Source: Pseudocercospora fijiensis CIRAD86
Taxonomy: Eukaryota; Ascomycota; Dothideomycetes; Mycosphaerellales; Mycosphaerellaceae
Direction: 5' to 3'
DNA length: 64,000 nt
NCBI RefSeq assembly: GCF_000340215.1
Contig: NW_006921542.1
Coordinates: 115,614-179,613 of the forward strand
Positions 1-51,859 of the stretch are shown in pieces. Position 1 is the stretch's first letter; the number at the start of each line of letters is the position of its first letter. The notes beneath the pieces are model-generated. The model was not told the DNA's origin. It searched no databases and saw nothing but the letters and a program-made list of their open reading frames with translations. The position numbers were made by a program, and so were the translations under genes.

Positions 1-8
1 GGCGCTCA

Positions 9-5797: not shown

Positions 5798-5815
5798 GTT
5801 ACGAGTTCCGTGACA
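5798..5815. repeat. Dispersed palindrome, copy 2
   Basis: TGTTACG at 5798-5804 faces CGTGACA at 5809-5815 across a 4-nt spacer, with one mismatch. It lies about 130 bp upstream of the start codon of the 957-aa gene, within its likely promoter or leader. Confidence 0.6.
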
Positions 5816-5869
5816 ACCGGCAATCTCGGTAACTCAGGTTGCGTCAGTCACTCTCGCAACGCGACCCTT

Positions 5870-5944
5870 CGCGCGCACACACCAACCGCCGACGTCTCCC
5901 CACCGCGCTTCGACTCTCCTCCTCTCCCGCCGCTTCACAATCGG
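5870..5944 (+). promoter_or_regulatory. Pyrimidine-rich leader of the 957-aa gene
   Basis: The 75 bases before the ATG at 5945 are rich in C and T (CTCTCCTCCTCTCCCGCC at about 5913-5930). CT-rich tracts just before the start are common in filamentous-fungal genes. This is the main reason for choosing 5945 over the earlier in-frame ATG at 5792. Confidence 0.45.
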
Positions 5945-8875
5945 ATGGCACGACTCAAAACCACCCCCAGCAATGTTCGCTTCATGGATGCGGCACAAAA
6001 ACTTGCAAGCTGTCACGATGCTGCCGGCCAGATTGTAGCCAGCCTCGACGGGCCTTCTGTCCTGGACGAATACAGCGCGGCCTGGCACTCCTATGCCGAC
6101 GATGTTGATGCGCCCGTCACTTCACAGCTCGATTCAGTTATCGATTCTCAGCACCTCGACACACTGGATCACCTCGTGTACACGATCATCCCCGAATATG
6201 CTGCAAAGTTCATGAAGAGTTGTACTCGCAAGGGAAGGTAGAATCTTCGTGCCTGTACAGCCTTCGCACTTTTTGGACGAGATGGGATGCAGAGCGCCAA
6301 GTTCATTGAGGCCTTGAATACAATATCGCAACACCAAGTCACGCTTTCCGAAGCGTTGAGCGCGCTACGGGAAGGGCAAAACGAGCGTCTTGTCCTTAAG
6401 AAAGGGTTCAGAGTGTCGCGAACGAAATCTTGGATCCCATGGGATGCGGAGGAGTATGCGCTTCCGAAAATATGCAAGGATCAGGACTGCTCCCATTGCG
6501 CAACCCTGCGAAGAAGGGCTGGGAACAAGAAGAAAAGAGCCGCGAACAAGACGGCTGTTTCTGCCAGGCCGCTCACTGGCGACAGTGGTGATGAGATACA
6601 GGTTGCTCCAAGAAAGCGTGCTAAACCTTCAATGGAGGGAGAGAAGGATGCGGCAGCATCTCCCGCGGATCAGAACAACGAGCAAGCATCTTCTGCGGGT
6701 GGGAACAACGAGCAAGCATCTCCGCATGTGAATGACGAGGATGCACATACAGATGAGAGTGATGCTGGGCCATCGAAAGATTCAGCAGATGGAGGAAGCC
6801 ATGGAGAGTGTGCTGAATCTACACTGGAGGGAGAAGAGGATGGGGCAGCATCTTCTATCGATGGGAACGATGAAGGAGCATCTCCTGCGGATGAGGACGG
6901 GATCGGACTGCCTCCCTCAGGCGAGAACGGCGAGGATGCATCTCATGCGGTCCATGCCGATGATGGGACACCTCCTGCAGATGAGAATGACACTGGGGCA
7001 TCAAAGGATTCGTCAGATGGTGGACAAGAGAACCGACGAAGAGAAGGTTGTAGTCATGGTTGTCGGCGCGTGATGGGTTTGGACTGCACGATTCAGCACG
7101 ACTCCATGCAGGAAACTGCCGGCAACGCCATCTCGTCAGGCCAGTTCGAGAACATATTTCAAGCCGATTTTCTGCATAACGGCGGGATGCAATCTCCATT
7201 ACGGCCAGCGTCTCGCGCCGCCGACTGCTCTCCCGCCATCGAACAGCCCCGAGGTCCGATGTTTGCGCAACCTATGGACCACTGTGGATACGACAGCAGC
7301 GATGACGACGACGATGAGCACCGCATTGACTCCAGACATCCGGACCACGATGCATACGAAACTTTCAATGGTGATCGCGGTAGCTTCCTCTTTTACCGTG
7401 CAGGAGCAGGTGCCGCCAAGCCAGGCAACACCTTCAGCAGTCATCCCTCCCCACGCTCTGACTTCACAGCATCGTCATCTCCGCTGCCACTGCCACTTCC
7501 TGACTTCGATTCACATCTACAGACTTGCGGCATGTACAATCACAATCAACAACTGGCATTAGTGAAACCTTCTCGACCGGCAACCAGACGCTCGGTCTCC
7601 CAATCGTCGGCAAAGGAGACTGCCAACCCCCGCAAACGCGCCCGCACTGGCTCCCTCGCCGATGACACGATGAGCGATGGCACGAGTTCCGAAAGCATCG
7701 CTGCGACGATTCAAGCCGCATTCAACCTCTTCTCAACTGCTGCCGCCGCCGACGCGTGCCTGCCGCCAGCCCATGCTTCGACTGTCGCCCAGCCAAGCCC
7801 ACCGGCTGCAGCTGTGCTTCGCGGCACCAGAGATGGCGACGCACATGTCTTCATTGTGTCGAGTGGGATTGCGTCGGGGACATCTGGCTGGTTCTTGACC
7901 ACATGTCGTACAGGGAGCGACGGGTCGCATTATCTATCCGTGTGCTCACACGAGCTTGCGATGGAAAGAGAAGATGCCGAGAGCTATACGCAACGTGCCC
8001 TTGAACAAGTCCTGCAATCCATCAATCTCGACATCGAGAGCACGACCAACGAAGTGCACGTTATGACGAATGAAGTACGCGTCGACGTATACTCGCACGA
8101 CACCTGGCCGTACGTACTTGCGACGGCAGCCCTCTTGCAACTCACCAAGACCATCAACCCAGATGAAGGATCGTCGCGTGTCCTGGCAGCATCCGTGTGT
8201 GCTGATGCAATGGGGAGTGCCGCGCGACTCGCCAACTCCTTGCATGAAACAAGCCCTTCCGAGCCTTGCCAAGAAGCACGCAGTAGGAATGTGGAACGGC
8301 TGCTGAAGACATTACCGCCTGTCAATCCCAACGTCGCACTCGACAGTCCGATATCCGAACCATCAGCCACGTCTCCGATTCTGACCCAGATTGAATTCAG
8401 CCTACAGTCGCACATGCTTCGCTGGAATACCGAGATTGCCGCCCATGTGGATGCCTACACCAAACATGCGGAGCACCTTTCTACATACATCGCTACCACT
8501 ACGGAGATTCGTCATACCGCCGTCCAGTGGTTCCACGCCGTCCGAGACAGGGATGTCGCAAAAGATAGGGAGCAGAAGGACGACGCAGAGAAGAAGCTCC
8601 GCGACGCACAAGACATCCTGAAAACGATGAATCATGACAACAGCCACCGAGAACTCATCATGGGGCTCGTGAGCGACACCACTGCACAGGTGGACTTGGT
8701 AAGCGGTGCGCCACCTCGATCCAACCATCAAAAAGCCCTGGCCTACCTCCGAGACGATCTCGCTTGCTACAATGCCGGGCTACAGGACGAGTTGGGCAGA
8801 GTGCAGGCGCTGCGAGACAAAGCTGAGAGAAAGCAGGCTGAGATAGAGCTTTGGGTGAAGAGTGGCACCTCGTGA
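5945..8875 (+). CDS. Hypothetical protein, about 957 aa, nuclear-type low complexity
   Basis: This is the only substantial gene of the window. The proposed model starts at 5945, splices out 6238-6294 (57 nt) and ends at the TGA at 8873-8875, giving 957 aa. The frame is identical before and after the intron; the only obstacle is one TAG at 6239-6241. Visible parts: an N-terminal helical region (residues 1-150); a Cys cluster CKDQDCSHC near 160; a basic segment RKRAKPS near 204; acidic imperfect Asp/Glu/Ala/Ser repeats (about 210-346); a DDDDDE run near 435; a second basic segment RKRARTG near 546; and a charged, probably coiled-coil C terminus (about 800-957). The basic segments suggest a nuclear protein. 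No known family is recognised. It has no neighbours within 4 kb that look like genes. A nonsense mutation at 6239 is the alternative to the intron. Confidence 0.6.
6238..6294 (+). other. Proposed 57-nt intron
   Basis: It begins GTAGAA directly after AAGGGAAG and ends GCAGAG. Length 57 is a multiple of three, typical of fungal introns, and removal joins Lys-Gly-Ser-Ala-Lys in one frame. Without splicing, a TAG at 6239-6241 stops translation. The GCAG two bases earlier is a better 3' site, but using it would shift the frame. No strong branch-point motif is visible. Confidence 0.45.
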
Positions 8876-8996
8876 GGCATGACAATTTGCGTGGCAATTG
8901 GGGTGGAGGACAACGCCAGGCTCGCGAGATGAAGGCCATGGGACATCTTTCGGTGCTGAGTGGCACCTCATGGCGTGACAATGGCAATTTGCCTTG
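8861..8996 (+). repeat. 98-bp direct repeat at the gene's 3' end
   Basis: AGTGGCACCTC occurs at 8861-8871, overlapping the stop codon region, and again at 8959-8969. Each is followed by GTGA/GCATGACAA and GGCAATT-type sequence. The second copy lies in the 3' flank, so the end of the coding sequence has been duplicated downstream. Confidence 0.6.
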
Positions 8997-10223
8997 AAGC
9001 ATGAGATCACACACGTTCGCGCATGTTATGGTATATGTCTCTACTGCACAGTTGTTGGAATTACTCGGTATTGTATGATCTTGGGCGCGCTGCATCATGT
9101 GTCTCTCTCAGCTCGCCACGTCGACTGGAATCTTAGTATGTGGATTGTCAGAAACCCGTACGTTCCCTCTTTCCTCGTTGTCTTTGGATGTTGTTTGGGG
9201 TGGGTGGAGGGTGCTGCGCAGGATGAGGTTTCCGGTTTCGAGACCTCCAGCATATGGGAGAGAGGTCAGGCGGAAAAGGGCAGCTGCTGACATGTTCAAA
9301 AACTTAAGAGCTGTAGCTTTTGGTGTCGTGGTGCCTGGGGTCTGTCGTGGTACCTTTCTTTTTTCTTTGAGAGATTGGCGATGGGGAGTGGGGTAGTGGT
9401 TGTGAGTAGGGAATCGGAATTGATGAAAGGATTGCTGTTTCATGAAGGAGGTGGGATGGTTGGTATGCGTGACGCACTCTATGGCTTCTGGTGTTTTGTC
9501 GCCTGCTACTCAATGGCAGTCCTCCAAGTCTTACCATTCTACGTAGGCGTGCTTCACAGCCCCATGATCTGCGTCAGCTATTGGCATGGTGACTGGAATC
9601 AGGAAATTGATGAAATGATCATCATTTCACAAGGGAAGCAAAAACTTGGCTGTGCAGGACGTCCTCTCTTGGGGCCCAGAGTTTTGTTTGTGGATGGTCT
9701 ACTTGGAAGATGTAGGTTTGTGCATTCTAATACATGTCGTGGGGAGTCGCTATCGTGAGTTGTTTCTCGTCTCGCGTGCCTGCTTTTTTATGTGTCGACG
9801 TTCATGAAGACCTTGGGCTTGCATGACGGTTTGTTATCAGCCGGGTGAACGCAAGATCACGCTTCGATGCATGTCGGATGTCCATTGAGAGAAAAATGGT
9901 ACTACTCGTGGAGCCAAGTGAGTGGAATTTCATGAACATTGATGATGAAACGGGCAGGAACAAGACATCTCTGACTATGCCAATACGGCCAATCTCCTTC
10001 CCTGGGTCTTGCCAATCATCATAAGTTCTTTGTAGTAGTGATTCCCTCGGGATCAGAACCCCATGCTTGGGCGTAGACGGCCCGAGACCATGTCCATCAC
10101 TGCTTCGGGAGCAAGCTGAACGCTTTCATGCTGAATCATCTGCGCCCTTCTCGTTCTATGTTTACCGTTCTCTTGGCGTGCCATTCCTCCTCGCAACCAC
10201 ATCCCTTGGATTTGAACTGCTTT

Positions 10224-10334
10224 AGTCGGCCAGGTGGGGGAGAAGCAACCTGAATGCTCCTATGCGGAATTTTCTGCTTCAGTCGGCCAGGTGGGAGAGA
10301 AGCACCCTGAATGCTCCAATGCGGAATTTTCTGC
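10224..10334. repeat. 57-bp tandem duplication
   Basis: AGTCGGCCAGGTGGG starts at 10224 and again at 10281. The two 57-bp units differ at only a few positions and both end GCGGAATTTTCTGC. Confidence 0.9.
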
Positions 10335-10854
10335 GCGCTTCTCGTTGTCTGGTTCGTATCCGATTCACGTCACATTCCTCTCTACAATCACATCACTCGG
10401 GTTTGGACTGCTGCCGTCGGCTCGACAATTACCTCGAGAAGCTGGAATGGATGGCATACGTAGACTGTTCTGGGATTTTTGGGATGCCTGGCGCGCTCGT
10501 AGAAGATGGCGCTTTCTTTTGAGGTAGCCGTGAATGCCCTCGTCTCTTGCACAAAAGAGTCTGAATGTCATCTTCTGCTATGCTGCCTCTTCTCAATAGC
10601 TCATTGATGCACGAATGTAAGGTGCACCGGGCTTCTTGTGTCTGCAATGTCGCGAGGCGTCACGCTGTTTGATGTCGTCGCGCCACTGACTGTGTGCGCT
10701 TCGTTGGCTGTAGTCTACGCGCTGAGTGGATCGTGATGTCGTAATGTTGTGAATCCCACATAGCGTAGTGGAAGAGGGAGAGGGAAGACAGTTTTGTAGA
10801 GAAGTGAGAGAAGTGTCCCCGCTTTGAACTGCAACGGGTGTTAGCTGAGTGCTC

Positions 10855-10879
10855 GGTTGTTACGATTTCAGTGACAACC
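10855..10879. repeat. Dispersed palindrome, copy 3
   Basis: GGTTGTTAC at 10855-10863 faces GTGACAACC at 10871-10879 across 7 nt; 8 of 9 positions pair. Another half-copy, CGTGACAA, lies about 25 bp downstream. Confidence 0.75.
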
Positions 10880-11049
10880 GACGGTTTGCGGTGAAGGTAG
10901 GTCGTGACAATCGAGCTTCGGTGGCATCCAAACTTAGTACACCTTCTCGCATATGAAAGGCACAGTGAATGATGAATAGAGTTGTCAGACTGCTTGCATA
11001 CAGCAGAATGTCAATGAGAGGGCTATTCTTATCGGGAAGGCTGGTCATA

Positions 11050-11072
11050 GTTGTTACGATATTGGTAACAAC
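11050..11072. repeat. Dispersed palindrome, copy 4
   Basis: GTTGTTAC at 11050-11057 faces GTAACAAC at 11065-11072, perfect 8-bp arms. A half-copy GGTTGTCAC follows at 11081-11089. Confidence 0.75.
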
Positions 11073-11901
11073 TGCCGTTTGGTTGTCACTCAGATCGCGG
11101 AACCTGAAGCTCTGAGCTTTGCTATGCTTGATTGAAGCACGCCAAAACAGGTTGAGTCAAAAGACAATACTATCAGTATTAGACAGTAGGGTACCATCCC
11201 ATTTCGCGGCTGGTTGTTCGAGTTTTTGGCGTTCGATTATCAGCAGTATCGTGACACCCAAGTTCTAAGCCGTGCCGCAATTTTGTAAGCTTGAGACCGT
11301 GTTATATGTGAAGGAGAGCTTTGCCATTTTCTCTGGGCTAGACATCCGTGCGAATTGTATTTCTAGAACTGACTGCACTCTCCACTCAGATGAGACCTCA
11401 CAACTGTCAATACCCGGCACTTCCAGTGGAGCTGTACATCGAAAGCGCCACCACACGTCCTCTCAGTGCTGATCCAGACTCGAGGCGCGGAACCTCACTT
11501 CTCTTTTCTAGACATCACCACTGTTCTATAGAATCTAGGCCAGGAGTTCAAAAACTCTCGACTCTGCTTAGCAGGAATCATTCATGGGTCCGGCGTGGCT
11601 GATACTTCCTCGCTGTAGTTGGGGCAGATTATCCAATCCAGCTTGTCTAGGCGTCCCATCCCAAGTGCTGAACTTCTGCCTAGATGCATTCACATTACGG
11701 TAGAGGTCATGAAATGGGGCCTCTTAGCCGAGCTTTCATTTGACGATATGGCTGCTGCCTCTGTTATGCACGTTGTCATCCTTCCCTATATCCGTAACAG
11801 CCTCCCACCGCAAGAGCGATTCTAGCCATTGCTGAAAGAAGAGGCTTCTTGCTTGACATTCTTATATTTTTTGCCGTGCTGGAATCCTCGAGGAGCGACA
11901 A

Positions 11902-11922
11902 TTGTCACGTATTTCGTGACAA
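11902..11922. repeat. Dispersed palindrome, copy 5 (best copy)
   Basis: TTGTCACG at 11902-11909 faces CGTGACAA at 11915-11922 with a 5-nt spacer. Both 8-bp arms are perfect, and CCGAG follows, as it does at several half-copies in the arm. Confidence 0.8.
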
Positions 11923-12809
11923 CCGAGCATCAAGCCACAGGTCTCGCACACTACCCGCCCATTGACCTTTCACGAGGTCACGACCTTCCAAGGCACACGC
12001 GATATCGACCATAGCCAGCATTCGCAGCATGAAAATGGCCACGAGCAGCCCCGAGAGCACATTTTGCCATGGTCGCAGTGCATGCAGGCTTCGACGCATG
12101 CACAAATGGTCCCAGTAATTTCATCTCAGCTGCCTAAATGCGTCCATCATTCGCAGTCATTCCACTCATGCTGGGCAGCTCAGTCTTGGTTCCCCAGTGT
12201 GAATGGCTACCTGGGCAAGCACTGGAATGCAAACAGTCCGCTGGATGCAGAAGTCGAGTTCTTCAGCTCACTGTTCAACGTGGGACATCACTCGATCGAG
12301 TCCTGCCTGTCCTTGCTCCGGTGGATGTATACCAGACATTCATTCATACGTTTGGTTCAGAACTGCCACATTGGAATGTCGAACGTTTGCCATGTTTGCC
12401 TCCCCGAGGGAGCCCCAAAATCATTCCTAAATCGTCCCACAAACTCAACAAGAATAATGCTGTGGAACTTACGCCAACGGATGAAGATGGTGTCTAAAGT
12501 GGTGTTGCTGGTGCTCCAGCGTGGCAAGGACGAGAGGCTTTGTGACGATAGTGATTTGTGTCGCTGATGCTGTAGTGTGACATTGACATGAAATCGAGTC
12601 CTTGATGCCGTACCAGAATTGACGCGCGGCGCTGTGGCAATGTTTTGTTACCATCTGTAGGCGAACTGGCATTTGGTGTCTGTAGTGGCGCAGTTGGTGC
12701 AGATAACGCACCCCTAAGGTGCTGTTTTCCGCGAAGGAGTCACTAAATCTCCCCGCCTGGCTTCTATGCGTTGCCTAGCCAAGTGGTAGGGATGTCGAAG
12801 GTGTTTTGT

Positions 12810-34849: not shown

Positions 34850-37800
34850 TATAAGCTTTTAGCCTTCTTCTTGTTCTTTACGCTAGTCTAATACTTATCT
34901 AACAACTCGGTTATGTCCTTAAAGGAGTCTTTAGCTTCCTATAAGTCCTATTCTAGTGAATAGCCTTGCTATCTTAGTAGGTACTCCTTCTTGCCTTACC
35001 TAGTCCGGTGCTTTAGGATACGTTCTACAGACTACAGCTCTTTACTATCCGCTAGTATGTCTTCGTATTTAGTAGGGGCTTCATCCCCCTCGCGTAGGTA
35101 ATATAGCTTAAGGAGGGATATATAGAAGGTGTTATAGATAGTATAATAAGGAGGAAGCTATAACTAATAGGCCTATGCGGAGGAGCCCTTAACTTCTCGA
35201 ATGCGGAATAGACTAATGTACCTTGGTGCTAGTTTAGGGCGTGTTTTGCTATCAGGTAATAGGTATTTACGGATGCGGAGGTTCTTCGTACTAAGCATAA
35301 CTATATCGCCTTGTTTGAAGGTTATTGGCGTATAGTGTTTGTTATAGTAGGCCTTCTAATAGGCCTAGGCCTTTGCTAGTTTGTTAGCTATTATAGCGTA
35401 AATTTCTCGTATCTTTTGAACCCTCTTAATAGCCGCTAGCGTCTTAGGTATTGGTACTTGACGCGCTTCCCTTTCCTTACGCTCGGCCTCGAGCGAGGTA
35501 AATAGGTCTTATAGTAAGGCGGCGTTCTAGCCTATTATAGCTATATATAGTAAAACCTTAGTAGATAAGTGTACACTGTTATTATATACGAATTCTATAG
35601 GCTATAGGAGGTTAACCTAGTCGTTAGGGTTCTCGTTAATATAACTGCGCAGGTACTGCTATAGGGTAGCATTCTGCCTCTCTGTTTAACCGTTAGTCTA
35701 TAGATAGAAGGCTATTAATAGCCGATGCTTTAGTCTTAGCTATAGGCATATCTCGCTCTAATAATAGGATGTAAATGTCGTGCCCCGGTTAGAGACTATC
35801 CCCTTAGGGGTTCCCTAATAGGTATAGAAGATGTTGCTCTATAGAGCCTCTACTATGTTAATAGCAGTCCAATCCTTCCGTGCCGGGATATATCGAGCGC
35901 CTTTAGTGAACCGATCTACTATAACAAGGATAGCATCGAAGATGTCCTTGCTACCCCTACGTTTAGTAGGTAGAAGGCCTATAATGAAGTCTATTATAAG
36001 CTCTGTAAATGGCTTGTAAGGGATTGGTAGTGAGGACAACTCGCTAAAAGGCTGATGTTTTAGTGCCTTAATACGTTAATATACGGTATACGTATTAACG
36101 TATTCCTTTATATCCCGCTTACTATTTAGCTAGTAGTATGTGCGCGATAGTAGCTCGTACGACCTCTCTATGCTATAGTAACCGGCAAGCTTACTATTAT
36201 AGTGTCGCTTAAGAAGCTCTTGTCGGATCGAATGTTTAGCGGGGACATAGTATCTACCCTTAAACTTTAAATAACCTTTGTTATCGATCGACCAATTGTT
36301 ACTCTTACTAGGTCGAGTCTTTCGCCTACTTACAAGCTTATCGATACGTTTAGTAGCAAAGGCGTCCCTCTGCTAAGCCCGTAATAGCTTATCTATAAAC
36401 GATTGACTATCCCTATTTATAAGGTTATTTAATAGTACCCTCGCTATTAAACGAGGTACGCATTATATACATCTAATAGCACTAGTAGCCGGATTAACTG
36501 CAACCTCTTCTGCAGTGCTATCGCTATAGATAGCAATATCTTTAATCGAGTCGTTATAGCTCGAGCGATCTACGTCCTTTTTGACGTACACTAGAAGAAC
36601 GACAACTCCGCTATAGTATTTGTTGCCGCCGCGGGGTCCGGAAGTCCGCTTATCCTACGCCTACTTTATAGCAAGGTCTATAGCAATCTTATACTGCAGG
36701 GTTAGAAACAGAGAATTAATATGTTAGGTTTCGCTATCGTAATTAGGTCGCCTCGATAGGCTATTAGCAGGGTTACTTACGCCTAGCCGATATAATATAT
36801 TAAAATCGAACCCGGCGAGGTAGACGGCCTATCTAGCCTATCGACCTATAACCCTAGTAACCTTCGTAATTCTACGGAGGTTGTTATAGTCCGTATAGAC
36901 CTAAATAGGATGCTAAGCACTATCGAGATAATAGCGCTAGTGCTTAAAGGCTTCTACGATTGCTAGGAGCTCTTACTCGTAGGTCTCGTACCGACGTTCT
37001 ACGTCGATTATCTTCCGTAAAAAGAAGGCAATCGGGTACTAATAGGTATTATTAGCCTGCTGTAATATAATAGCTAATATAGCGAACTGTAAAGCGTTAG
37101 TTTCAATTCGGATCTGCTTGCTTAGTACGAAATAGTGCAATAAGGGGATATTAGTAAAGCGTTGCTTTAGGCCGTTAAAAGCGGCTTGCGCTCTATTAGT
37201 CCATTTGAACTCTCTAGTTAGGTTGGCCTTAGTTTTGGTAAGCTTAGTTAGGGGCATTATATGCCGTAAATAGCCCTCAATAAACCGATAGTAGAAGTTA
37301 GCAAAACCTAGGAATAATTGAAGCTCTTTAATAGACGTAGGAACGGGCTATTTAGTAATTGTTTTAATCCGGTTAGAATTAGCCTTAATACCCTTAGTTG
37401 AAATAAGAAAGCTAAGGAATAACACCTCCTTAGCAGTAAAGGTGCATTTAGAAGGCTTGTAATATAAGCTATAGGCCCTTAGGCGATCGAGTACCTTACG
37501 GACTATAGCCTAGTATTCCGCAATATTAGGAGAGTATATATAAACTAGGATGTTATCTAGGTAAACCATACAGAGGTAATCCAATAGGCCTAACAGGGCC
37601 CGATTAATATAGGACTAGAATGTAGTAGGGGCATTAGCTAGCCTAAATAGTATAACTAAGTACTTAAAATAGCTATAGCGAGTACGAAAGGCTGTCTTCT
37701 ATTCATCGCCCTTGCGAATACAGATGCGGTAATAGGCGTCCTTAATGTCTAATATAGTGTAGTAGTAGGCACTAGAAAGGCGATCGAGGGTCTTATTAAT

Positions 37801-38790
37801 AAGAGGAAGTAGATAACGATCTTTAATAGTAACAGCATTGAGTCTACGGTAATCGACGTATAACCGTAGGCTACTATCCTTCTTTGGAACAAATAGGATT
37901 AGTATACTAGTAGGGCTGTTACTATACCGAATGCGACCGTTAGCTAGATTTTCCTCTAGGTACTTACGCAATATAGCGAGCTCTCGTTTACTAAGGTTGT
38001 AGAGGGGACTAAAAGGAACCTCTTTGCCCTCTATAATGTTAATCTTATAATCTGTCTCCTTGAATATAGGCAATGTCGATGCTAAGTAGTGTTTAAATAT
38101 ATTAATATAGGTCTCTCGAATGGGCTCTAGTATACGTTCGAGCTGATTAGAGTCTATACTATTAGGGGGCATAGGTTCTTTGTTATCCCTACCGAGCAGG
38201 TCGGCAGTCGGATTAGCTAGGGTTAGGTTGCTAATGAATAGGACCCTAATATCGTTAGGGTACTCGCTAATATCAATGTGTTTAATGTCCTCTTTCCTAG
38301 CGATTCTAAATCGCTACTATTAGCTGCCTAGGTCTATAACTATAGCGTAGTACTTAAGAACAGGGTTACTAATAACAATATCGGATAGGAGGCTGTCTAT
38401 GTCTACCGCGTAGGTAGTGAAGTTTAGTAGGCGTTCATTTCCGAGGTCGTCTTTTAGAACTATAGGAACATAGTAGGCTCTATAGGTTAAGTGCCGAGCG
38501 TCATTAAACTAAGCAAGGGTTAGTAGGTTAGTCTTCGGCAGTTGTCGAAGGTCTAATTGCTTAGCTAGGTAATAGCTAATAAGGGCGCTAACTGAATTTC
38601 CGGGGTCTAGTATAACCTTTGCCTTATAGTTAGTATCGGGCCTAGATATAAGACAGGTACGTATAATAGCTAGCACAATGTCGATAGTCTTACGCCGTAT
38701 AAGGCTAATAGTTAGTGCGGCGCTTACTCTTTTTTCGACTAATTAAAAGAGCCGACTAGGGTAGTATTAGCGGCTGAAAGATGTTTCCTA
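34850..38790 (-). pseudogene. Gypsy pol polyprotein with C-terminal chromodomain
   Basis: Domains in reading order: aspartic protease with active-site-like DPGNS (about 38,610-38,640); RT (38,172-37,540) with [34 protein letters not shown] and [10 protein letters not shown], and the catalytic box now YLDNIL (37,552-37,563), with Asp changed to Asn; RNase H starting FKWTNRAQAAFNGLKQRF and including RIETNALQFA, also Asp to Asn (37,257-37,039); integrase core IIDFIIGLL...IVDRFTKGARYIP (36,039-35,839); and a chromodomain ILKHRTR*GKKEYLLR*QGYS (34,861-35,025) with two lost Trp codons. Many TAG/TAA stops separate the open pieces. A GAC-to-AAC change after T is what RIP on the opposite strand produces. 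Confidence 0.92.
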
Positions 38791-42244: not shown

Positions 42245-42252
42245 CCTATAAC
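42245..42252. repeat. Target-site duplication of hAT, left
   Basis: CCTATAAC, identical to 51852-51859. Eight-base duplications are typical of hAT transposases. Confidence 0.88.
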
Positions 42253-42272
42253 TAGACCCCGCAGTAGTTCGG
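42253..42272. repeat. hAT left terminal inverted repeat
   Basis: TAGACCCCGCAGTAGTTCGG. It differs from the right end only by C/T at position 10. It is followed inward by repeated GTTTAGTTTAG-type subterminal sequence. Confidence 0.88.
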
Positions 42273-42439
42273 GTTAGTTTAGTTTAGTTTACTAAGCCGA
42301 AACTCTAGTTTAGTTTAGGTTAGTTTGCTAAGCAACTATATAAGTAGCTAGTTCGAACTATATAATTTATCGGTTTTTAAGAAGTGTACGAATGTATACG
42401 TAGCTTTAAGCAAGCCCTTTGTAAGACTTAGTAGTATAG

Positions 42440-42460
42440 CCGGCAGCGTAGCCGGCATTT
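42440..42460. repeat. TAGCCGGC repeat pair
   Basis: Two copies of TAGCCGGC with a short GTAGCG-type linker. First of about a dozen clusters of this motif confined to the hAT element. Confidence 0.6.
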
Positions 42461-42684
42461 TTAGTCCTTAGTACTTATAGAATTTTCGAATCCTACTTAG
42501 GCTACGTAGTTGTATAAAGGTACTTATATAACCTCAAATCTATAGACAATTAGCTAAGGGCACTAACTAATCAAAAGCATATACATATATATATAAGGCA
42601 TTATAGTTTAGTTCGGAAACTGCACTCCTTAGGTATAAATTTCATCCTTTCGTTTACGGTTCAATTCCCTAACTGCTTAGTAGA

Positions 42685-43134
42685 ATGTCTTTATCTAGAT
42701 CTAGGTAGAACTTATCGATTTCCCTAGAAGTCCTCCTCCTTAAGAAGTTTATATACTTTCCTACCGAACTATTCGATAATATTAAGTACTAGGATAGCTC
42801 CTCCCTCGGTATTAGCATAGTATATAAAAGAGCTATAAGGCAGCTCTATAGAACGTTCTACTAGTTACTCGCTATACTAAGGCCGAATGCTAGTTCGTTC
42901 CTTAGAACTCTTAGTTATTTAGGAGATATAAAGGGTAGGGTAGGTAGTAACTTCGTATTATATAAGGAGGTAGAGGCTGCTATAGAAGAGGCCTTCAACC
43001 TATAGAAGATAGTAAAAGATATAGAGGCAGCTATAGGTCTAGGTACCTAGTTGAATTTCTAGTAGGTAGAGTATAAGGATATTTAGAGGGAGTATTAGGT
43101 AGAGTTGCGAAGGCAGGTATATAATATGCTCTAG
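42685..43134 (+). pseudogene. hAT cargo frame 1, about 150 codons
   Basis: A plus-strand frame opens with ATG (MSLSRSR) and reaches a TAG after 149 codons; the final TAG may itself be a lost Trp. Its internal stops are all TAG/TAA. The sequence looks helical (YKEVEAAIEEAFNL, VKDIEAAIGLGT) and has no recognised family. Orientation is opposite to the transposase, so it would need its own promoter. Confidence 0.45.
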
Positions 43135-43269
43135 AAAACAGGGATAGTGCCTATAACTATAACTATTAGGCTCTTTAACCTTCCTTATTTTTCCCTGTTT
43201 TCTTTTTATAAAAATCTAAACTAATACAAATCAACCGGAATGTCTATCTTCTTTTAGTTCTTTGAAAAA

Positions 43270-43322
43270 CCTAGCAGCGTAGCTAGTAGCGTAGCCGGTA
43301 GCGTAGCCGGTAGCGTATACGG
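43270..43322. repeat. TAGCCGGTAGCG repeat cluster
   Basis: Four units of about 12 bp (GTAGCCGGTAGC and relatives). Same family as 48843-48919. Confidence 0.6.
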
Positions 43323-43469
43323 CCTTTTTACTCCTTAGTACTAACGGGATTTTAGGAGACTTCTATTCCGTACGGCAAATAAAGTATACTATACTATATA
43401 TATATACTTAGAGAGTATTTAGAGCGCGGTATACAGCGCCGTATAACAGCGGCTTATTTCGTATATAGA

Positions 43470-43960
43470 AAAGCTTATAGATAACACTACGAACATCCTT
43501 TCTACTAGAACATCTATCCTACCTAGCACCGTGTCGAATATAGACATTCTAGCCTTTTAGAATCTAATCGAGTACTTTAAAATCCTTGTCTATAATCGTT
43601 ATACCCTTCGCGTAGATAGCTATAAGGTTGACCGCTAAAATAGTATTAGTATAGTCCGAAAAGAGGTAGAAGAGAAACATACATTCGAAGATACGAACTA
43701 GGTAGGCTTCTATAGCCTCTTAAAGGGCGCCTATCGCGGAGGCTTAGAAGCGAAGGTCCGTTCTATAATCCTAGGCAATTTCGCGAATAAGTCGTTAGAA
43801 AGGAGCTTTACGGATTAGGAGCTTAGAACTCTTCTAATACTGCCGAATCTAACGGAGGGCTACGGCTAAAGAAGGATTAGTAAAAAGACAGTAAGAATGC
43901 CGGCTACGCTACCGGCTACGCTGCCGGCTACAAATAGGACTTACTTCCTAGGCGCTATCG
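43470..43960 (+). pseudogene. hAT cargo frame 2
   Basis: A plus-strand frame with only TAG/TAA stops reads VSNIDILAF*NLIEYFKIL, then a charged segment (SIVRKEVEEKHTFEDTN), and ends with Pro-Ala-Thr repeats that are the translation of the GCCGGC motif at 43,894-43,935. No known domain is seen. Confidence 0.4.
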
Positions 43961-44220
43961 ACGCTTCGTACGATTGCTACTAGTAGTAGAAGCGCTAGTT
44001 GTCGTCTTACGTAGAGCCTTGCCCGCTATTGTCTTACGCGGAGCCTTACTCGCGACGCCCTTTCTAGTACCGGAGCTAGCGGTAGTAGTAGCAGCCCTCT
44101 TACGTTAATATACTATACTCGTTCTACTATTTCCGGTCTTATTGCGACCCGTAGAAGTACTAGGTCCCTTCTTGCGAGGCGTCGTAACTTAGTTAAGTAG
44201 ACTCGCTATTATAAAAGTCG
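43940..44220 (-). pseudogene. hAT cargo frame 3, Lys/Arg/Thr/Ser-rich
   Basis: A minus-strand frame reads VTTPRKKGPSTSTGRNKTG and SGTRKGVASKAPRKTIAGKA, with stops TAA/TAG only. It is strongly basic and low complexity, like a chromatin-protein tail. No globular domain follows in the visible frame. A link to the histone-like gene 1.3 kb away is speculation. Confidence 0.4.
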
Positions 44221-45501
44221 TCGAATTAAGGAAAAAAGTACGTTACGAAGGTATATAAAGGCGCGCGCGGAGCGAGGGTATTGCGGAAGTAGTAGATATA
44301 GAGCGTAGAGGTATAGGTATCGATACGAAGGTTGAATATAGCGGTAGTATCGCGGTATCGCTAGGTAATAGAGTAAGCTTCGCGTAAGCCTATATTATAG
44401 TAACGTTAGAGCAAGGAAAGAAGGCAGGTACGGCTAAAAAAGGTAGGTACGGCTAAAAAAGGCAGGTACGGGAGACTTTGAAATATAGCCGGTATATATA
44501 GCCGGTATAGTAATAGGCGAAAGCCTCCTTTTAATGAATAGCCGGCGTAATAATAGTATCTTACTATAGTATAGATATTCTTTAGTAATGCCTTTACTAG
44601 CTATAGTAATCTTATAAGTAACCTAGGCCTATTACTAGAAAATATAAGAAATATTAGGTAGGCTATACTAAACAAGCTAGTTATTTAGTAGGAAAAGGCC
44701 TACTACCGTCTCTATATACCGGCTACGAGTGCCGGCTATCGCTCTAAATTTAACTCCGCCCTATCTCGGAGGCTAAGGTACCGAGCGGAAACCCTATAGC
44801 TTATATTTACTCGGTTGTCGCGGAGCGCTTATAGGTAAGGTATTAGAAAAGAGTATAAAAAGTACGAGAAGAGTATCCTAGGATATAGGTCGTAAGTAAA
44901 TAAGAGTAGTACGCCTAGTTATTTATATAGTACGTTACTCTATACGACTAAGAGCCTATATTATCTTATGCTTCGCTTATAAGACCTCGACTCTACTAGT
45001 ATACTATCGATCTCTTCCTCGGTCGCTAATACGCTATCTTAATTCTTCTTCGAGTTGCCGGACTTAGTACGTATCTATAGCTATACAATAGCGCTACGTA
45101 TTATAGAGAATTTCTCGTTAAAGTTTCTCTCTCGTAGGCTTGCTATCTACCTCGTAGTATAGAGGATCAAAGTGCTAATACTAAAGAATCTCCTTATAGT
45201 TAGAATACTAGGGCTCCTTAGGACCTTTGTGTTTTAGGTCTAAATAGAGACGTATTATAAACGTTCTATCGCCCTTTCGCTTACTACCCGCTAGGTCGCG
45301 ATATACGAAGAAACTAATCTAAATATAGCTCGTCTCTGTAATAGCCGGGTAAATATAGAGCGCTAGGTTTCTACTTCGTACCTTAGATTTAGGGACGGCG
45401 CGGAGATAAAATTAGAAATATAGCCGGCACCTATAGCCGGTAAAAGGATGCGAAAATAGGCCTCCTCCTAGGTTAATCTAACGACTAAATACAATTTCCA
45501 A

Positions 45502-46095
45502 CTAATCCGCTATAAACCGACGCCGAATTTTAGCTAGAAGCTATATATCTTTATTTTAAAGAGTAACCCGCTTCGTATAGATAGTAAGGAGGTTTAAAAG
45601 CTTAAGCTCGGTTACGAGAAATGCCTCCGTAGCTTCCTAAAGAGCACTAATCGCCTTAGCCGTAAATCGCATACTAGACCGAAAATCTAATGTAATTTCT
45701 CGGACGAGTCGCTAGAAGGGAGTCTTAGGGATTAAAAGCTCGGTCCCTCTTTTGTTTTAGAAAAGCCGGATCTAGCGAAGGGCAATAGTACCTAGTTTAA
45801 AGCGCCGCTTCTTTGTCGTCGAGTCCTGCCTTATTCCCTTTCTTTTAATAGAAAGATAACTTTTCTTCGCGATAGTCTTCGTCCGCCTACTCTTTTTAGC
45901 CTTCTCCTATCTACCTATAGCCTTCTTGTTTTTCGGTACTGTTTTCCGAGGAACCCCCTTCCTTCGTATATACTACGGAGAGCCTTACTCTTCCGATATC
46001 TCGTTCTCGCTACGGTCTCCCTATACTTAGCTTGCTTTACCCTTGCCCTTTAGCCTCTAAAGATATTTATCTACGCGTTTAGGCGACGAGGGCAT
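45502..46095 (-). pseudogene. Histone H3-like (possibly CenH3-type) cargo gene
   Basis: One frame runs from ATG 46095 to TAG 45502-45504, 197 codons. Residues 97-197 are a histone H3 fold without frame breaks: FKLGTIALR, then TELLIPKTPF*RLVREIT, then ISAL*EATEAFLV, then IYTKRVTL*NKDI*LLAKIR. Twelve internal stops occur, all TAG or TAA. Four of them replace Gln residues invariant in H3 (in RYQ, PFQR, LQEA, DIQL), as CAG/CAA to TAG/TAA mutation predicts. Residues 1-96 form a long Lys/Arg-rich tail; RRTKTIAKKS at 70-79 weakly recalls the canonical H3 tail. Canonical H3 is about 136 aa, so the tail is about 55 residues longer, as in many centromeric H3 variants. There are two extra residues between the N helix and helix 1; loop 1 has canonical length. 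It lies downstream of the hAT transposase on the same strand, inside the TIRs. The intact form would package DNA in nucleosomes. Confidence 0.85.
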
Positions 46096-46559
46096 ATCGG
46101 TAGGACCTAGAAAATTAATAAGTATATAATCGTAAGGAGACATTAATGCTTCTTGCCTTCTAGAACAAATAGTCTTCTATTAAACCGCCTTAGTAGGTCA
46201 TCGTTAGATTCGAATAAAGGATAGTAGCTTAAGGAAGGGGAGGTAGCCGGCTTAGGAAGGCCCGAAGAGCCGAATCCTTAAGGCATATTTGTCTTTAAGA
46301 ATATAGGGAAAGGGAAGAAGGAGAGGAAGAGCGAATAGAGAATTAGAAATAGTCCGTAGGTAAGCGGGGTCGGTTGCTATAGCAACTAGTCTGTTTAGGT
46401 CCTAGGAATTCGAAACACATTTCGGATATATACCGGCTATATACGCCGGCTATATTACCTTATATATAAACGCTTCGTCTCCTTAAAGCTGCTCTAAGCC
46501 TATATACGTTTCCGCTTCTCGACCCGGTATCGCCTTCTACCTCCGCCCTCCTCCTCTTT

Positions 46560-48640
46560 ATTATCGCTAATTAGGGTTTCGCTTAGACTAAATTTCGTAT
46601 TCTCTTCGCGCTCCTAGGTTTCTTCGATCTTAAGGTTTTCTAATTCCTCGATTAACTCCTTTAGTATAATCTTTAGTAACCTGCCTTAGCGATTCTAGTA
46701 GAGGAGATAGTATTAGAATACTATAATAGATTCGAAGGTAGTAGGCGAGTATATTCGATTAAAGCGGCCCTAGTAACGAGCGATACTAAAAGACCTCTTA
46801 TAGCCTATACCTACGCTCGGGATAGCGAGGACGTCCTAAGCGACCGACGCTATCGTTAGAAACTTAGGCTCTAACCGCTGCTATATAGCGAGAATATCGT
46901 CTCCGAATTCGTCTAGAAGACCGGTAAGATCTAGAGATTATTAGCCCTCTTTCTAAGCCTACGGGTTTGTACTTACTCGCGCGCCGATAGAGATCGAACT
47001 CTTCTTTATTTACTTTAGTAGTTGCTTCCTCTTCTACCTCTACTTCCTACCTACGAAATAGGTATAATATCGGAGCCTTCTAAACCTTCTTTTTCTTTAT
47101 AGGAGCTGTATTTAGACTAGTTTCTTTCCGACGCTCGTAGAACATCTTTTCTAGAATAGTCTAGTAATGCTTCGGCTATACCTCGTCCGCCTTCTATTCC
47201 GGCCTCTACTAGTATATATCCTTTTCTACCGGGTTAAGCAAGTACGTAACGCTATAGATATCCCCGAACGAGTTAAAGGTAGTACTGTAATATTTATACA
47301 ACTTAGTATAGGAGGTGTCTATAGCTTTCGTTATAGCTACTTTCTAGGGAACGCTCTTCTTAGCTAGCTTAGCTACGGTTTCCTCGAGCTCGTTAAAGAG
47401 CTAGTTATAGTACGTAAAGACAAGGTAGATCGTCGGTCCTCGGGTTCTTCTAATCGTAGCAGTAACCTTCGTATAATGCTTACTAATATCGACGAGATAC
47501 TCTGCTTAGCGCTATTCGGCGGCGGTAAGGCCGAGCTACTTAATACCCTCGGAACTCTAATAGATCTCGAGAGCGGTACGTAAAGTACATCCCCTCGTAA
47601 CTATATAGAAAGTCGAATCGAACCGGGTCTTAACGTCTTAGGTAAAACGGAGTAGGCGCTAAGGAGGCCGCTTTTGCTATCGCTTATTCTATGCGATATT
47701 CTAGGCATCGGTTTAAGGGCGCTCGATTAGGTTCTTTTAAATAGCCTCGAATCGGTTATATCTCTATAAGCTCGAGTTCGTATATATTGCTAGACGACGA
47801 AGCTAGAGAAAAAGAGTTAGAACTATACTAGGTTGCCGGCTATAGGTACCGGCTACGGACAAAAGTTATACCTTATATAAAACGAGAGCGAGGCTCTCTA
47901 CCTTATCCCGTCTTATTACTATAGTAAGTTTCTCGACTTTCGACTTTGCTTTATCCTTATCTAGGATCTTCTATTAGTCGTCGTTTAATAGTGCAATTTT
48001 AAGCGTCTTAAAGAGGGCTCGGATCGCGATTTGAACTATATAAGCGAGGTAGGGAAACTTCTATAGGGATGCAACTAGCAACGACGTCGGCTCCGATTCG
48101 TTAGGGCTAGGGCTATTAATAGGCTCCTCTTTATCGTTATTATCGTACGTATTATCGTACGTATCCGGAATCGTAGCGAGCTTAATATTCGGAAGATTAA
48201 GCTAGATTATAGACCTTATAATCTCCTCTACGTACTCGACCCTATCGATATAATTAGTAATTTCAAAGATATATACGAGTGAATTGTATATACAACGCCT
48301 TATATAATGTTCGATTATTACTAGCGTTGTCCGCGGTAATCGAGATTAGTTTCGTTATTACGCTAACCCTATCTATTGCCGTATAGACAAGCTTCGCTAT
48401 ATCCTTACTAGTATAGGAACCTAGAATTTTAGGGAATCCGATTATAAGTTCCTAGAGTTTCTAATCCGAATTAATAAAGTATAGTATAATCGAGAGGAAG
48501 GAGGCTCTTATAGTCCGGCTTAACTAGCTATCGATAGCAATAGCTACTCGGCGAGTATTACGGAGGATCTCTTAAATATCGTCTAACGTAGCCTCTTTGT
48601 TCTTTTCGAATATAATACGCTAGGTTGTCGCGCCGAGAAA
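46560..48640 (-). pseudogene. hAT transposase
   Basis: Catalyses cut-and-paste movement of the element in the nucleus. Two diagnostic regions are readable. The RNase H-like core at about 48,620-48,300 contains RRVAIAIDS*LSRTIRASFL, INSD*KL*ELIIGFPKI and ISITADNASNN, which match the hAT core (D-x-W-S-S, W-K-L-hydrophobic, T-D-N-A-x-N-N). The C-terminal dimerisation domain at about 46,920-46,680 contains FLTIASVA*DVLAIPSVGI and RSFSIARY*GRFN. Stops are TAG/TAA at expected Trp/Gln sites. The N-terminal limit is uncertain; a frame continues to about 49,270, but no BED finger can be confirmed. Confidence 0.88.
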
Positions 48641-48842
48641 TAGGGGAGGGTAGTTTATAAGATATAGGTATGTCTTCTATATAGACTCCCTTTCGTAGAA
48701 GTCTTCCGGAAGACCGTTTGTAGCTAGTATTTCGTTTGCTAGTTGCTTAAAGTCTTCGGGGGAGAAATCGGTAGCCTTTAATCCTAGAGCTTCCTTAAGC
48801 GTAGCCTATAATAATTAGCTAGACCTCTACGGTTGATTCAAG

Positions 48843-48919
48843 TAGCCGGAATCTATAGCCGGAATCTATAGCCGGTAGCTATAGCCGGCAGCTATAGCCG
48901 GCAGCTATAGCCGGCATTT
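48843..48919. repeat. 13-bp GCCGGC minisatellite, six units
   Basis: TAGCCGGMATCTA/TAGCCGGCAGCTA units start at 48843 and recur every 13 bp to 48908. This is the longest of many clusters of the same motif within the hAT element (42,440; 43,270; 43,894; 44,480; 44,720; 45,420; 46,430; 47,833; 50,283; 50,850; 51,520; 51,665). Confidence 0.85.
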
Positions 48920-49714
48920 TAGAAGACGTACCTCTTTCTAGAACGCTATATCTATATTAACTCTCCTCTTTCCTTAAGATTCCCGATACCGTTTAGAATA
49001 GAGATAGTTCGTAGGCGATAAGTTCCTATCCCCTAGTTTCGGGTGTTTTAAGATTGAACCGTAGAAGTTATAGACAATTACTAGTTAACCTTTAAGTCGA
49101 GAAGTCGTATAACGGTATAATGCCCCCTCTATAAAGAACTTCTAGAATGTATCCGTTCGCTCCTTACTCCCCTATCGCATCGAGTACTTCCGGAGTTTAT
49201 ACTCCTTCGAACGTAAGTATAAAGGGAACTATATCTTATAGACCTATTAATTAAACTGCTCTATATACTCGGGTTTCTAAAGATACGCCTAGCTAGCCTT
49301 TTCGAAGATTTCCGGGTTAATACTCGATATTCTTATATCTCCGAACAACCTTCTACTTAGACTCCGTAAAGGTAAGGACTAGGTGGTAGTACCCTATAAT
49401 GAATTCCTACTACTAGGATTCGGAGAGGATGAATCTAGCCCTAATCGTCGTCTAGGACTCGATAGGCTCGAAGGTAAGTATACGACCTCCTCTCGACGTT
49501 GTCGTAATCTTGCTCGTATACTAGACTGTTTCGACTGTCGTCTCGTTATTACCCTTCCTAGTATAGCGCCTAGTATATATACAATGTCGGTCGGTATGTT
49601 TTAAGGTTTCGTACGGTAAGGTAAGGACTTAGGAGTAGTAGATATATACTAGTAGCTATAGGGAAACACCCTTTCTTTTATAGTATCGTATCGTTAGGAA
49701 CAGCTAGGCAGTAA

Positions 49715-49834
49715 ATAGCTAGCTACCTTTTTTTTTTGTTTCCTAGCTACCTAACTACCGGATTTTTTTTCCTAGCTACCCTAGCTAGCCTAACTACTAG
49801 AATTTCTTTCCTAGCTACCCTAACTACCTAAATT
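49715..49834. repeat. Poly-T / CCTAGCTACC minisatellite
   Basis: Three units, each a T-rich run (up to about ten T) followed by CCTAGCTACC...TAACTACC-type sequence, with a period of about 40 bp. It lies between the transposase frame and the next cargo frame. Confidence 0.65.
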
Positions 49835-49859
49835 TTGCCTTCTATACGGCGGCTCTCTC

Positions 49860-50270
49860 CTACTAACGGAACCGAGCTACTATACCTAACGAATCTAAGC
49901 TCGTTTTTAGTCTTAATCTATCCTCTTTCGGTATAAGATACTCGATAAGCAAATGCTTAGGCCGAGTCTAACTACGAAACCTAAGACTAACTAATAGCTC
50001 TATTAACTAATCCTAATCCTCGAACTCCTTCCGCTTCTTAGTAAAGACCTTAAAGAGCGCTCGAGCTTCTTCGGGTGCCTATAGAGTAGTCGAGATAAAG
50101 CCGTATCGCTAAAATAGGTAATCCTTCGGAGGCTTATATAGAGATTTAGAGAATTCTAACGCTAACCTATCCTACTAGCAGCTTAGATTCCGGATATAAG
50201 CCCTCTCTACCTTAGTAAAGATTTTATATAGCAGTAGCACTCTGCCTTCGAGAAACGCTTTCTATTTAAC
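49860..50270 (-). pseudogene. hAT cargo frame 4, helical
   Basis: A minus-strand frame with TAG/TAA stops only reads GRVLLLYKIFTKVERAYIRN, ISTTL*APEEARALFKVFTK and RPKHLLIEYLIPKEDRLR. Charged and helical, with no recognised family. It lies upstream of the transposase in the same orientation. Confidence 0.4.
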
Positions 50271-50899
50271 TATTAGTATCTGCCGGCTACGAACGCCGGC
50301 TATATATACCGAGTATAGAATAATTACCTATACCCCTTCCTCCTATAGTAACACTTCTACCGTCCCTAGATACCTAGCCCCGATCGCATTAATCGCAAGC
50401 TACTTTGCCTTTATAGACGTAAAGGCTTCGCTCTAATACTAATAAAGAAACTTCTACTCTATATCGAGGATATAAAGACGACTAGTCTCGATTCTAATCC
50501 TTGCTAGCTTTTCGTAGTAGCTTTAACTATAATTTTCTAGATTAATAGGACTTATACCTTAGCCCTTTACTAGTATCTCGTCTCTTTAACTATACTCGAT
50601 CTACTCCTAGCGCTTATCGTCTATAGCGTTAGGCCCTAAGACTGTACCTGTTACTAGATCGACGTATAGTATCTCCTCGCTTTTTTTAGTTCCTTTATTC
50701 GTAGTATTAAGCTCTGTCGCGGCATCCTAAACTCTAGTATTATTGTTCTCGGCTATCTAAACATCTCCGTTACTATCGGTCGTATCGATAGAGGTAGCGG
50801 CTATAGGTCTAAATACTATTAGTTAACGTATTAAAGAAAAATATGCCGGCTATAGCTGCCGGCTACGGCTGCCGGCTATAGCTACTAGCTACGGCCGCT

Positions 50900-51240
50900 A
50901 GCTAGATTGACTTACGCTGCTAGAACTTTACGCTCGAAAACTGGCCGCAATTCTTTCCTCCTCTTAGCCTTCTCTTAGGTTATCTTCTTATTCTAACCTT
51001 CACTTTTTTCTATAGGCGCTAGCTATCGATAGAATGCCTCATTCCGCGCCTTTCTTCTCTTATCCTTAGCTCTTTTATCCTTATCTATCTTGTCCTTTCT
51101 CTCGCGGTCTCGTACGGAATTCTTCTTCGTAGAGTACTCCTCTTTAGTCTTACGCTTTTTAGTTAGACGCTTAGGTAAAACAAACTCGCGGTCTTTAGTT
51201 CTATCTTCTGTTTAGCGCGCGGCGCGCTTCTCTCTTACTA
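50900..51240 (-). pseudogene. hAT cargo frame 5, highly basic
   Basis: A minus-strand frame reads SVRDRERKDKIDKDKRAKDK and then RRKARNEAFYR, with TAG stops further on. It is rich in Lys, Arg and Asp, like a nuclear coiled or linker segment. No domain is recognised. Confidence 0.35.
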
Positions 51241-51377
51241 TTATAAGGGAAAGGAGCGGGGGCGTAGCGTATAGTAGTTATTATCGGTATAGGTATAGAG
51301 GAAGAAGTTAAAAGTATAAGAATGTCGCGAAGCCCTAATTGTTGCCGCCTACGTAACGTTATATAGGTAAGCTTTCG

Positions 51378-51631
51378 CAACTACGGTAACTACGCCCCGG
51401 CAATAGCAACTACGCCCTAGCAACGGCAACTACGCCCTAGCAACGGTAACTACGCCCTAGCAACGGCAACCACGCCCTAGCAACGGTAATAAAGCGTAGT
51501 AAATACAACCTAGTAACTATTATAGCCGGCAATCGTAGCCGGCAGTCGAATAAGAGTGTCCTTATAGCAAAACTACGCCCTAGCAACGGCAACTACGCCC
51601 TAGCAACGGCAACTACGCCCTAGTAACGGCA
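51378..51631. repeat. 20-bp minisatellite in a duplicated block
   Basis: CAACTACGCCCTAGCAACGG is repeated five to six times (51378-51487) and again three times (51571-51631). Each array is followed by a nearly identical block (AAAGCGTAGTAAATRYAACM...GTGTCCTTATAG), so array plus spacer is itself duplicated. CA is frequent here, unlike the flanks. Confidence 0.85.
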
Positions 51632-51809
51632 AAAGAGCGTAGTAAATGTAACAGAGTTACTATTATAGCCGGCAATCGTAGCTAGCAGTCGAATAAGAGT
51701 GTCCTTATAGTAAAACCAATATAGTCTCTAGTTTAAACTAGGAATCTATATAGTTCGAAAAAACCAAACCGGAACTAGGGAGCTAGTTCGCCGCTAAGAA
51801 ACCAAACTA

Positions 51810-51851
51810 TATACGTTTAGTAGTTCGGAAACCGAACTACTACGGGGTCTA
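51810..51851. repeat. hAT right terminal inverted repeat with hairpin
   Basis: The outer 20 bases (51832-51851) are the inverted match of the left end. Just inside, TAGTAGTTCGG faces CCGAACTACTA, so the right end alone can form a hairpin with arms of about 11 bp. Confidence 0.85.
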
Positions 51852-51859
51852 CCTATAAC
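51852..51859. repeat. Target-site duplication of hAT, right
   Basis: CCTATAAC, matching 42245-42252. Confidence 0.88.

What the first reader, a model, noticed from the sequence alone, without database searches (positions are those of the whole stretch)
45502..46095. Histone H3-fold gene carried inside a hAT transposon
Between the TIRs of the 9.6-kb hAT element, next to the transposase and on the same strand, a 197-codon frame encodes a clear H3 fold with a 96-residue basic tail. Four of its stops sit exactly at Gln residues invariant in H3. I know of no described DNA transposon family with an H3 or CenH3 gene as cargo. A mobile element with its own H3 variant could affect nucleosomes at its insertion sites or at centromeres, or escape silencing. 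The function is inference; the H3 identity is seen directly.
Basis: partly seen in the sequence, partly recalled or inferred. Interest (0 to 1): 0.9.

Follow-up and report, generated by a model that had tools for sequence, protein, structure and literature searches.

The report
Broken jumping gene carrying two histones
A mutation-broken copy of a jumping gene, likely from the banana-disease fungus Pseudocercospora fijiensis, carries two histone H3 genes; this cargo has been in print since 2019, but predicted introns in one of them suggest that it was likely not picked up as a bare transcript, as that paper proposed.

Summary
On the minus strand a 197-codon frame (46095-45505) reads as histone H3 (86.6 bits, cut-off 26.4). 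It lies in a 9,599-bp element (42253-51851) with TIRs and an 8-bp target duplication. Of 20 near-identical copies fetched, 15 have both TIRs, all 15 with 8-bp duplications, 14 of them exact. Of 150 scored histone matches in the genome, 148 hold stops.

It is not new. Dhillon et al. 2019 (PMC6710886) describe such an element in P. fijiensis: about 9.5 kb, 20-bp TIR, 8-bp TSD, one or two H3 copies, all RIP-broken. Manning et al. 2013 (PMC3538342) describe an H3-carrying hAT in Pyrenophora.

What this work adds: the second H3 gene (44209-43549) holds two predicted introns; one, 48 bp, appears to be the paper's "16 AA insertion". Both also occur in a diverged copy. This conflicts with the published transcript-capture origin for that gene. 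H3-A falls into three subfamilies and has a predicted 5' exon. Neither gene groups with CenH3. Evidence that they were selected as working genes is suggestive for H3-B, inconclusive for H3-A.

The parts
42253..51851 (.). hAT-type element, 9,599 bp
   Evidence: TIR pair, 8-bp TSD; 15 of 20 copies align up to 42247-42253 and stop there; 15 of 20 copies have both ends
42253..42273 (+). left terminal inverted repeat
51831..51851 (-). right terminal inverted repeat (2 mismatches)
42245..42252 (.). target site duplication CCTATAAC, left
   Evidence: read directly
51852..51859 (.). target site duplication CCTATAAC, right
   Evidence: read directly
46157..46286 (-). H3-A, predicted 5' exon
   Evidence: aligned among subfamilies I, II and III; joins in phase to exon 2; L054 covers only part of it
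46107..46156 (-). H3-A, predicted intron (50-51 nt)
   Evidence: GCAAGA..CTAG in the window, GTAAGA in L052-L054, TTAAGA in L051; a 1-nt indel between subfamilies
45502..46106 (-). H3-A exon 2: basic tail and H3 fold
   Evidence: exon-2 indels among five sequences all multiples of 3
43945..44209 (-). H3-B, tail exon (start uncertain)
   Evidence: read; 27-nt in-frame length difference in 3 of 16 rows
43866..43944 (-). H3-B predicted intron 1
   Evidence: GTAAGT..TACTAAT..TTTAG in all 16 rows; kept in subfamily III; 3 nt from a host H3 intron, same phase
43683..43865 (-). H3-B fold exon
   Evidence: second Histone stretch
43635..43682 (-). H3-B predicted intron 2, 48 nt
   Evidence: GTATGT..TACTAATAC..TTTTAG; no transversion against subfamily III
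43549..43634 (-). H3-B last exon
46683..49555 (-). transposase-like region in several frames, with predicted introns
   Evidence: Dimer_Tnp_hAT E 0.012 at 46683-46982, below cut-off; intron-like site at 46976-46931

Best explanation
The window holds one stop-riddled copy of a 9.6-kb hAT-type DNA transposon that carries two different histone H3 genes; [quoted passage not shown] Shown: TIRs, 8-bp duplications, hundreds of dispersed TIR ends, depletion of CpA and TpG, and stops in 148 of 150 scored histone matches. Inferred: the host is P. fijiensis and this is the published H3-hAT family. Inferred: the two H3s were ordinary spliced genes of the element and made basic-tailed H3-fold proteins while it was active, probably entering nucleosomes as divergent H3 variants. 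No intact element copy was seen among those scored, so a present-day protein function is unlikely.
For: H3 identity. Element limits and TSDs. Copy number: 412 and 440 first-look candidates for H3-A and H3-B DNA, 40 of each scored; 772 histone candidates, 150 scored; 269+267 exact TIR ends, control 0+0. RIP: CpA observed/expected 0.21, TpG 0.22, TpA 1.66 in the element against 1.2, 1.23, 0.52 in 1-12500; 1,153 transition columns against 73 transversion columns among 9,589. Host match: 73.9 Mb and a three-exon host H3 on C6 against 74 Mb and scaffold 6 in the papers. Introns: a strict donor-branch-acceptor pattern occurs at exactly two places in the element, both in H3-B; of 300 shuffles of that strand none had two. 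Intron 1 signals stand in 16 of 16 rows. In intron 2 the donor reads GTATGT in 4 rows, GTATAT in 5 and ATATGT or ATATAT in 7, as RIP of TpG would make it; the branch reads TACTAAT in 12 and TGCTAAT in 4, and all 16 end TTTTAG. A diverged copy keeps both sites.
Against: No transposase domain was found above cut-off, and the transposase protein search gave no relative. No direct comparison with the published consensus was possible (supplement look-ups capped at 0). The 48-nt insertion is a multiple of 3 without an in-frame stop, so a 16-residue insertion is not strictly excluded; its donor is GT in only 9 of 16 rows. Selection tests are mixed: H3-A subfamily transversions show no excess of synonymous changes (p 0.46) and fold against well-aligned non-coding gives p 0.07; H3-B gives p 0.021 and p 0.006 for 2nd against 3rd positions against host H3, but after allowing for the host's own constraint P is 0.02-0.15 for H3-B and 0.09-0.46 for H3-A.
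Confidence: 0.88

Rival explanations
1. Passive transduplication: the element picked up a transcript or retrocopy of host H3 once, came to hold two copies of it, and carried them as dead weight until RIP (close to the published view).
For: H3-A runs uninterrupted through the position of host intron 2. A+B sit together in the best tree, support 78/68, not starred. H3-A subfamily transversions look near neutral (p 0.46).
Against: H3-B holds two predicted introns, one 3 nt from a host H3 intron in the same phase. H3-A has its own predicted 5' exon and intron and a tail unlike host H3. Its exon-2 indels are all multiples of 3. H3-B shows protein-level constraint between subfamilies (p 0.021).
Confidence: 0.3
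2. The 48-bp segment in H3-B is a coding insertion of 16 residues, as the 2019 paper describes for its second copy.
For: Multiple of three, no in-frame stop, no transversion in 48 sites against 34 in 270 exon sites (p 0.004).
Against: It begins GTATGT and holds TACTAAT 7 nt before the closing TAG, and its removal restores a gapless H3 alignment. The conserved letters fit splice signals and a pyrimidine tract.
Confidence: 0.08
3. A one-off host fragment or chance frame, not cargo.
For: None found.
Against: Same gene in 20 of 20 fetched copies, at dispersed sites with different TSDs in the 15 complete ones.
Confidence: 0.01
4. H3-A is a CenH3 (centromeric) variant.
For: Long basic tail; a tree joining H3-A and CenH3 is not rejected (p-AU 0.221).
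Against: No loop-1 insertion, unlike host CenH3; H3-A is a separate clade (98/99); the window copy is 54% identical to host H3 and 50% to host CenH3.
Confidence: 0.04

Closest known systems
H3-carrying hAT family of Pseudocercospora fijiensis (Dhillon et al. 2019, PMC6710886; abstract, Results, Discussion and Methods read)
   Same: Full-length elements of 9.5-9.9 kb, 20-bp TIR, 8-bp TSD, one or two H3 copies, the second with a 16-residue length difference, RIP-broken copies, average identity 96.5%, original H3 on scaffold 6.
   Different: The paper reports no introns, a captured transcript, one repeat family and no dimerisation domain. Here two predicted introns in the second H3, a predicted 5' intron in the first, three H3-A subfamilies, a 373-bp TIR-bearing derivative and a weak, below-cut-off dimerisation-domain match are seen.
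H3L hAT element of Pyrenophora tritici-repentis (Manning et al. 2013, PMC3538342; passages read)
   Same: hAT with transposase, a further ORF and an H3-like gene between TIRs.
   Different: 5.6 kb (and a 2.3-kb form), one H3L, 26 very similar H3L genes of which two alleles are frameshifted, ESTs present. The 2019 paper states that the hAT consensus sequences show no similarity to it. No protein comparison was made here.
Pack-MULE type transduplication in plants (as cited in the 2019 paper)
   Same: DNA transposon carrying host-derived coding sequence.
   Different: There gene fragments; here two H3 genes with a whole fold, one of them kept in frame in three element subfamilies.

Membership tests
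hAT superfamily | 8-bp target site duplication | tested here: met
   Window copy, and 15 of 15 fetched copies with both ends, 14 of the 15 identical and one with one mismatch
hAT superfamily | short terminal inverted repeats | tested here: met
   21 bp compared, 2 mismatches
hAT superfamily | hAT transposase domain | tested here: inconclusive
   Dimer_Tnp_hAT E 0.012, 15.9 bits against cut-off 21.4; no relative
P. fijiensis H3-hAT family of 2019 | length, TIR, TSD, two H3 copies, RIP bias | tested here: met
P. fijiensis H3-hAT family of 2019 | sequence identity with the published consensus | not testable with these tools
   the consensus is in a supplement; no supplement look-ups allowed
P. 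fijiensis H3-hAT family of 2019 | no introns in the H3 copies (a described feature, not one the paper uses to define the family) | tested here: not met
   H3-B introns; read here as a correction of the description
histone H3 | histone fold of H3 type | tested here: met
   Pfam and PDB sequence matches; four helices in the fold part of a low-confidence model (mean pLDDT 55.9)
CenH3 | loop-1 insertion and grouping with host CenH3 | tested here: not met
   joining H3-A or H3-B with CenH3 is not rejected (p-AU 0.221 and 0.44)

The most novel reading that the evidence does not exclude
The element did not ferry a stray copy: it owned a pair of H3 variants, intron-bearing and kept under protein-level selection while its subfamilies parted, and used them to build its own chromatin until RIP broke its copies.
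Probability: 0.3. Interest if true: 0.75.

Novelty: already known. Interest (0 to 1): 0.3.

Why it matters
The element itself is published, so the finding mainly confirms earlier work. The new point matters because the printed origin story (capture of a spliced transcript) rests on the absence of introns, and one of the two H3 genes appears to have two. If they are real, the element likely carried working histone genes, which makes the question why hAT elements in two fungal lineages carry H3 directly testable in lineages with intact copies.

Tried and rejected
Rejected: the inverted pair at 40499/49974 as TIRs (copies end at 42253 instead). CenH3 identity. Strong purifying selection on H3-A between subfamilies: transversion density in the fold is lower than in tail or flanks, but against well-aligned non-coding sequence p is only 0.07 and synonymous changes are not in excess. 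The very small p-values for fold against flank used a flank with poorly aligned stretches and are not relied on. Led nowhere: Pfam on plus-strand frames; the transposase protein search (none of 7,995 scored candidates at E 0.001 or better); H3-A relatives (364 at E 0.001 or better, 120 listed, 12 sequences read, which look like ordinary H3s, extended H3s and one CenH3-like protein; their genomic surroundings were not looked at, so transposon origin was not tested; P0008 aligns into the tail but at 42% identity); the structure model (low confidence). Searches for print on transposon-carried H3 (one search listed 20 of 86) showed the two papers above, a 2026 paper that repeats the 784-copy count (PMC13041039, passages), and among others a 2021 review (PMC8616336) that holds the words Dhillon, histone H3 and hAT but was seen as a listing only.

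Full report
Observation. The frame at 45502-46095 is open on the minus strand apart from 12 internal TAG or TAA codons. Read through, it matches Pfam Histone at 86.6 bits and solved H3 chains. All six frames of the element were scanned with stops read through. Only one family passed its cut-off, Histone on the minus strand, with two separate stretches; weaker matches there (CENP-T_C, E 0.019; BK_channel_a, E 0.26) are below cut-off, and the plus strand gave none. The second stretch is a second H3 gene, H3-B.

Element. The ends at 42253 and 51851 carry matching TIRs and the same 8-bp flanks. Twenty of the 39 other copies listed were fetched. Fifteen have both TIRs, four only the right one, one neither; all 15 complete copies have matching 8-bp flanks, 14 exactly and one with one mismatch. 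H3-A is full length in 20 of 20. H3-B is full length in the same 15 complete copies, partial in three, and not found in two. Genome-wide there are 269 and 267 exact TIR ends on the two strands, and none for the reversed pattern. Of the first 100 ends listed (of 536), 34 are plus-minus neighbours; 16 of these span 9.4-10.0 kb, one 5.2 kb, four exactly 373 bp, and 13 more than 15 kb. One 373-bp copy was read: it shares about 90-100 bp with the element at each end, and its middle does not match the element.

State. CpA and TpG are at about a fifth of expectation and TpA is high in the element, unlike the first 12.5 kb of the window. Among the window copy and 20 others, 1,153 columns vary by transition and 73 by transversion, of 9,589. 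This is the mark of RIP. In the histone search of the own genome, 150 of 772 candidates were scored; 148 contain stops, and the two without are host genes: H3 on C6 and, by its loop 1 and sequence, CenH3 on C5.

Literature. PMC6710886 (abstract, Results, Discussion, Methods) describes such an element in P. fijiensis. PMC3538342 (passages) describes a hAT with an H3-like gene in P. tritici-repentis. The finding is already known.

What differs from the printed account. The paper says that the second H3 copy differs by an insertion of 16 residues and that no introns are present, and concludes that a transcript or retrocopy was captured. In H3-B the H3 alignment is broken at two places. The first break is 79-103 nt in the 13 of 16 rows measured, starts GTAAGT, ends TACTAATCCTTCTTTAG, and varies by 12-bp repeat units. 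The second is 48 nt. It starts GTATGT in 4 of 16 rows, GTATAT in 5 and AT in 7, which is what RIP of TpG would leave; it holds TACTAAT (12 rows) or TGCTAAT (4) and ends TTTTAG in all 16. Removing both restores an alignment to H3 without gaps. Forty-eight nt equals 16 codons. The strict pattern occurs only at these two places on either strand of the element; no shuffle of 300 had two. A looser pattern occurs four times on the gene strand and never on the other; a third site lies at the junction of two transposase-like frames (46976-46931). The first H3-B intron lies 3 nt downstream of host H3 intron 2, in the same phase. The one subfamily III copy read keeps both (L056). H3-A has no intron in its fold, but an aligned 5' exon and a predicted 50-51-nt intron with a 1-nt indel between subfamilies.

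Relations. H3-A occurs in at least three subfamilies (window; L053 and L054 at 88-89%; L051 and L052 at about 80% DNA identity). In a tree of 25 fold sequences H3-A (98/99) and H3-B (99/97) are separate clades on long branches, apart from CenH3. They are neighbours in the best tree without firm support (78/68), and joining either with host H3 or CenH3 is not rejected (p-AU 0.069 to 0.494). One or two captures cannot be told apart.

Selection. Only transversions were counted, since RIP makes transitions. H3-A between subfamilies I and III: 11 in 303 fold sites, 21 in 272 tail sites, 30 in 443 well-aligned non-coding sites (p 0.07); synonymous share not raised (p 0.46). H3-B between I and III: 34 in 270 fold sites, 12 synonymous and 22 not, p 0.021; that rate is higher than in H3-A. 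Against host H3, second positions change less than third in H3-B (9 against 24 of 90, p 0.006) and not clearly in H3-A (p 0.06-0.19). After allowing for the host's own constraint, P is 0.02-0.15 for H3-B and 0.09-0.46 for H3-A, by the share assumed. This is suggestive for H3-B and inconclusive for H3-A.

Function. Inference: an active element likely expressed both H3 genes as spliced messages, and the proteins likely entered nucleosomes as divergent H3 variants. Nothing here tests expression. The copies seen today are broken.

Noticed in passing
window 42437-51672, many places: TAGCCGG or its complement occurs 34 times in the 9.6-kb element and 11 times in the other 54.4 kb of the window, as arrays of 12-13 bp units, several in predicted introns and gene spacers, often in inverted pairs; unit number varies among copies. 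The longer unit with 2 mismatches allowed is only modestly above chance in the whole window (28 against 15.6, 2 of 100 shuffles as high). Possible binding sites or leftovers of nested insertions.
   Followed up: partly
L055 (373-bp element at C2:581713-582085): Short TIR-bearing derivative whose middle does not match the element; four of exactly this length among the first 100 TIR ends listed.
   Followed up: partly
window 45363-44743 minus; 43182-42679 plus; 51250-49950 minus: Further long read-through frames inside the element without a Pfam match above cut-off; they may be more element genes.
   Followed up: partly
window 37699-38172 minus: Unbroken frame of 157 codons with a reverse transcriptase match just below cut-off (E 2.1e-6, 28 bits against 29.6), in an otherwise RIP-like region.
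   Followed up: no
L050 (C5:605900-607300): Host gene read as CenH3, with a longer loop 1 and an intron in the fold; the main text of the 2019 paper does not mention CenH3.
   Followed up: partly
H3-B, fold exons against intron 2 (window 43549-43865; L056): Exons of H3-B carry 34 transversions in 270 sites between subfamilies I and III, more than H3-A (11 in 303, p 7e-5), while intron 2 has none in 48; the element may be a mosaic of subfamilies.
   Followed up: no
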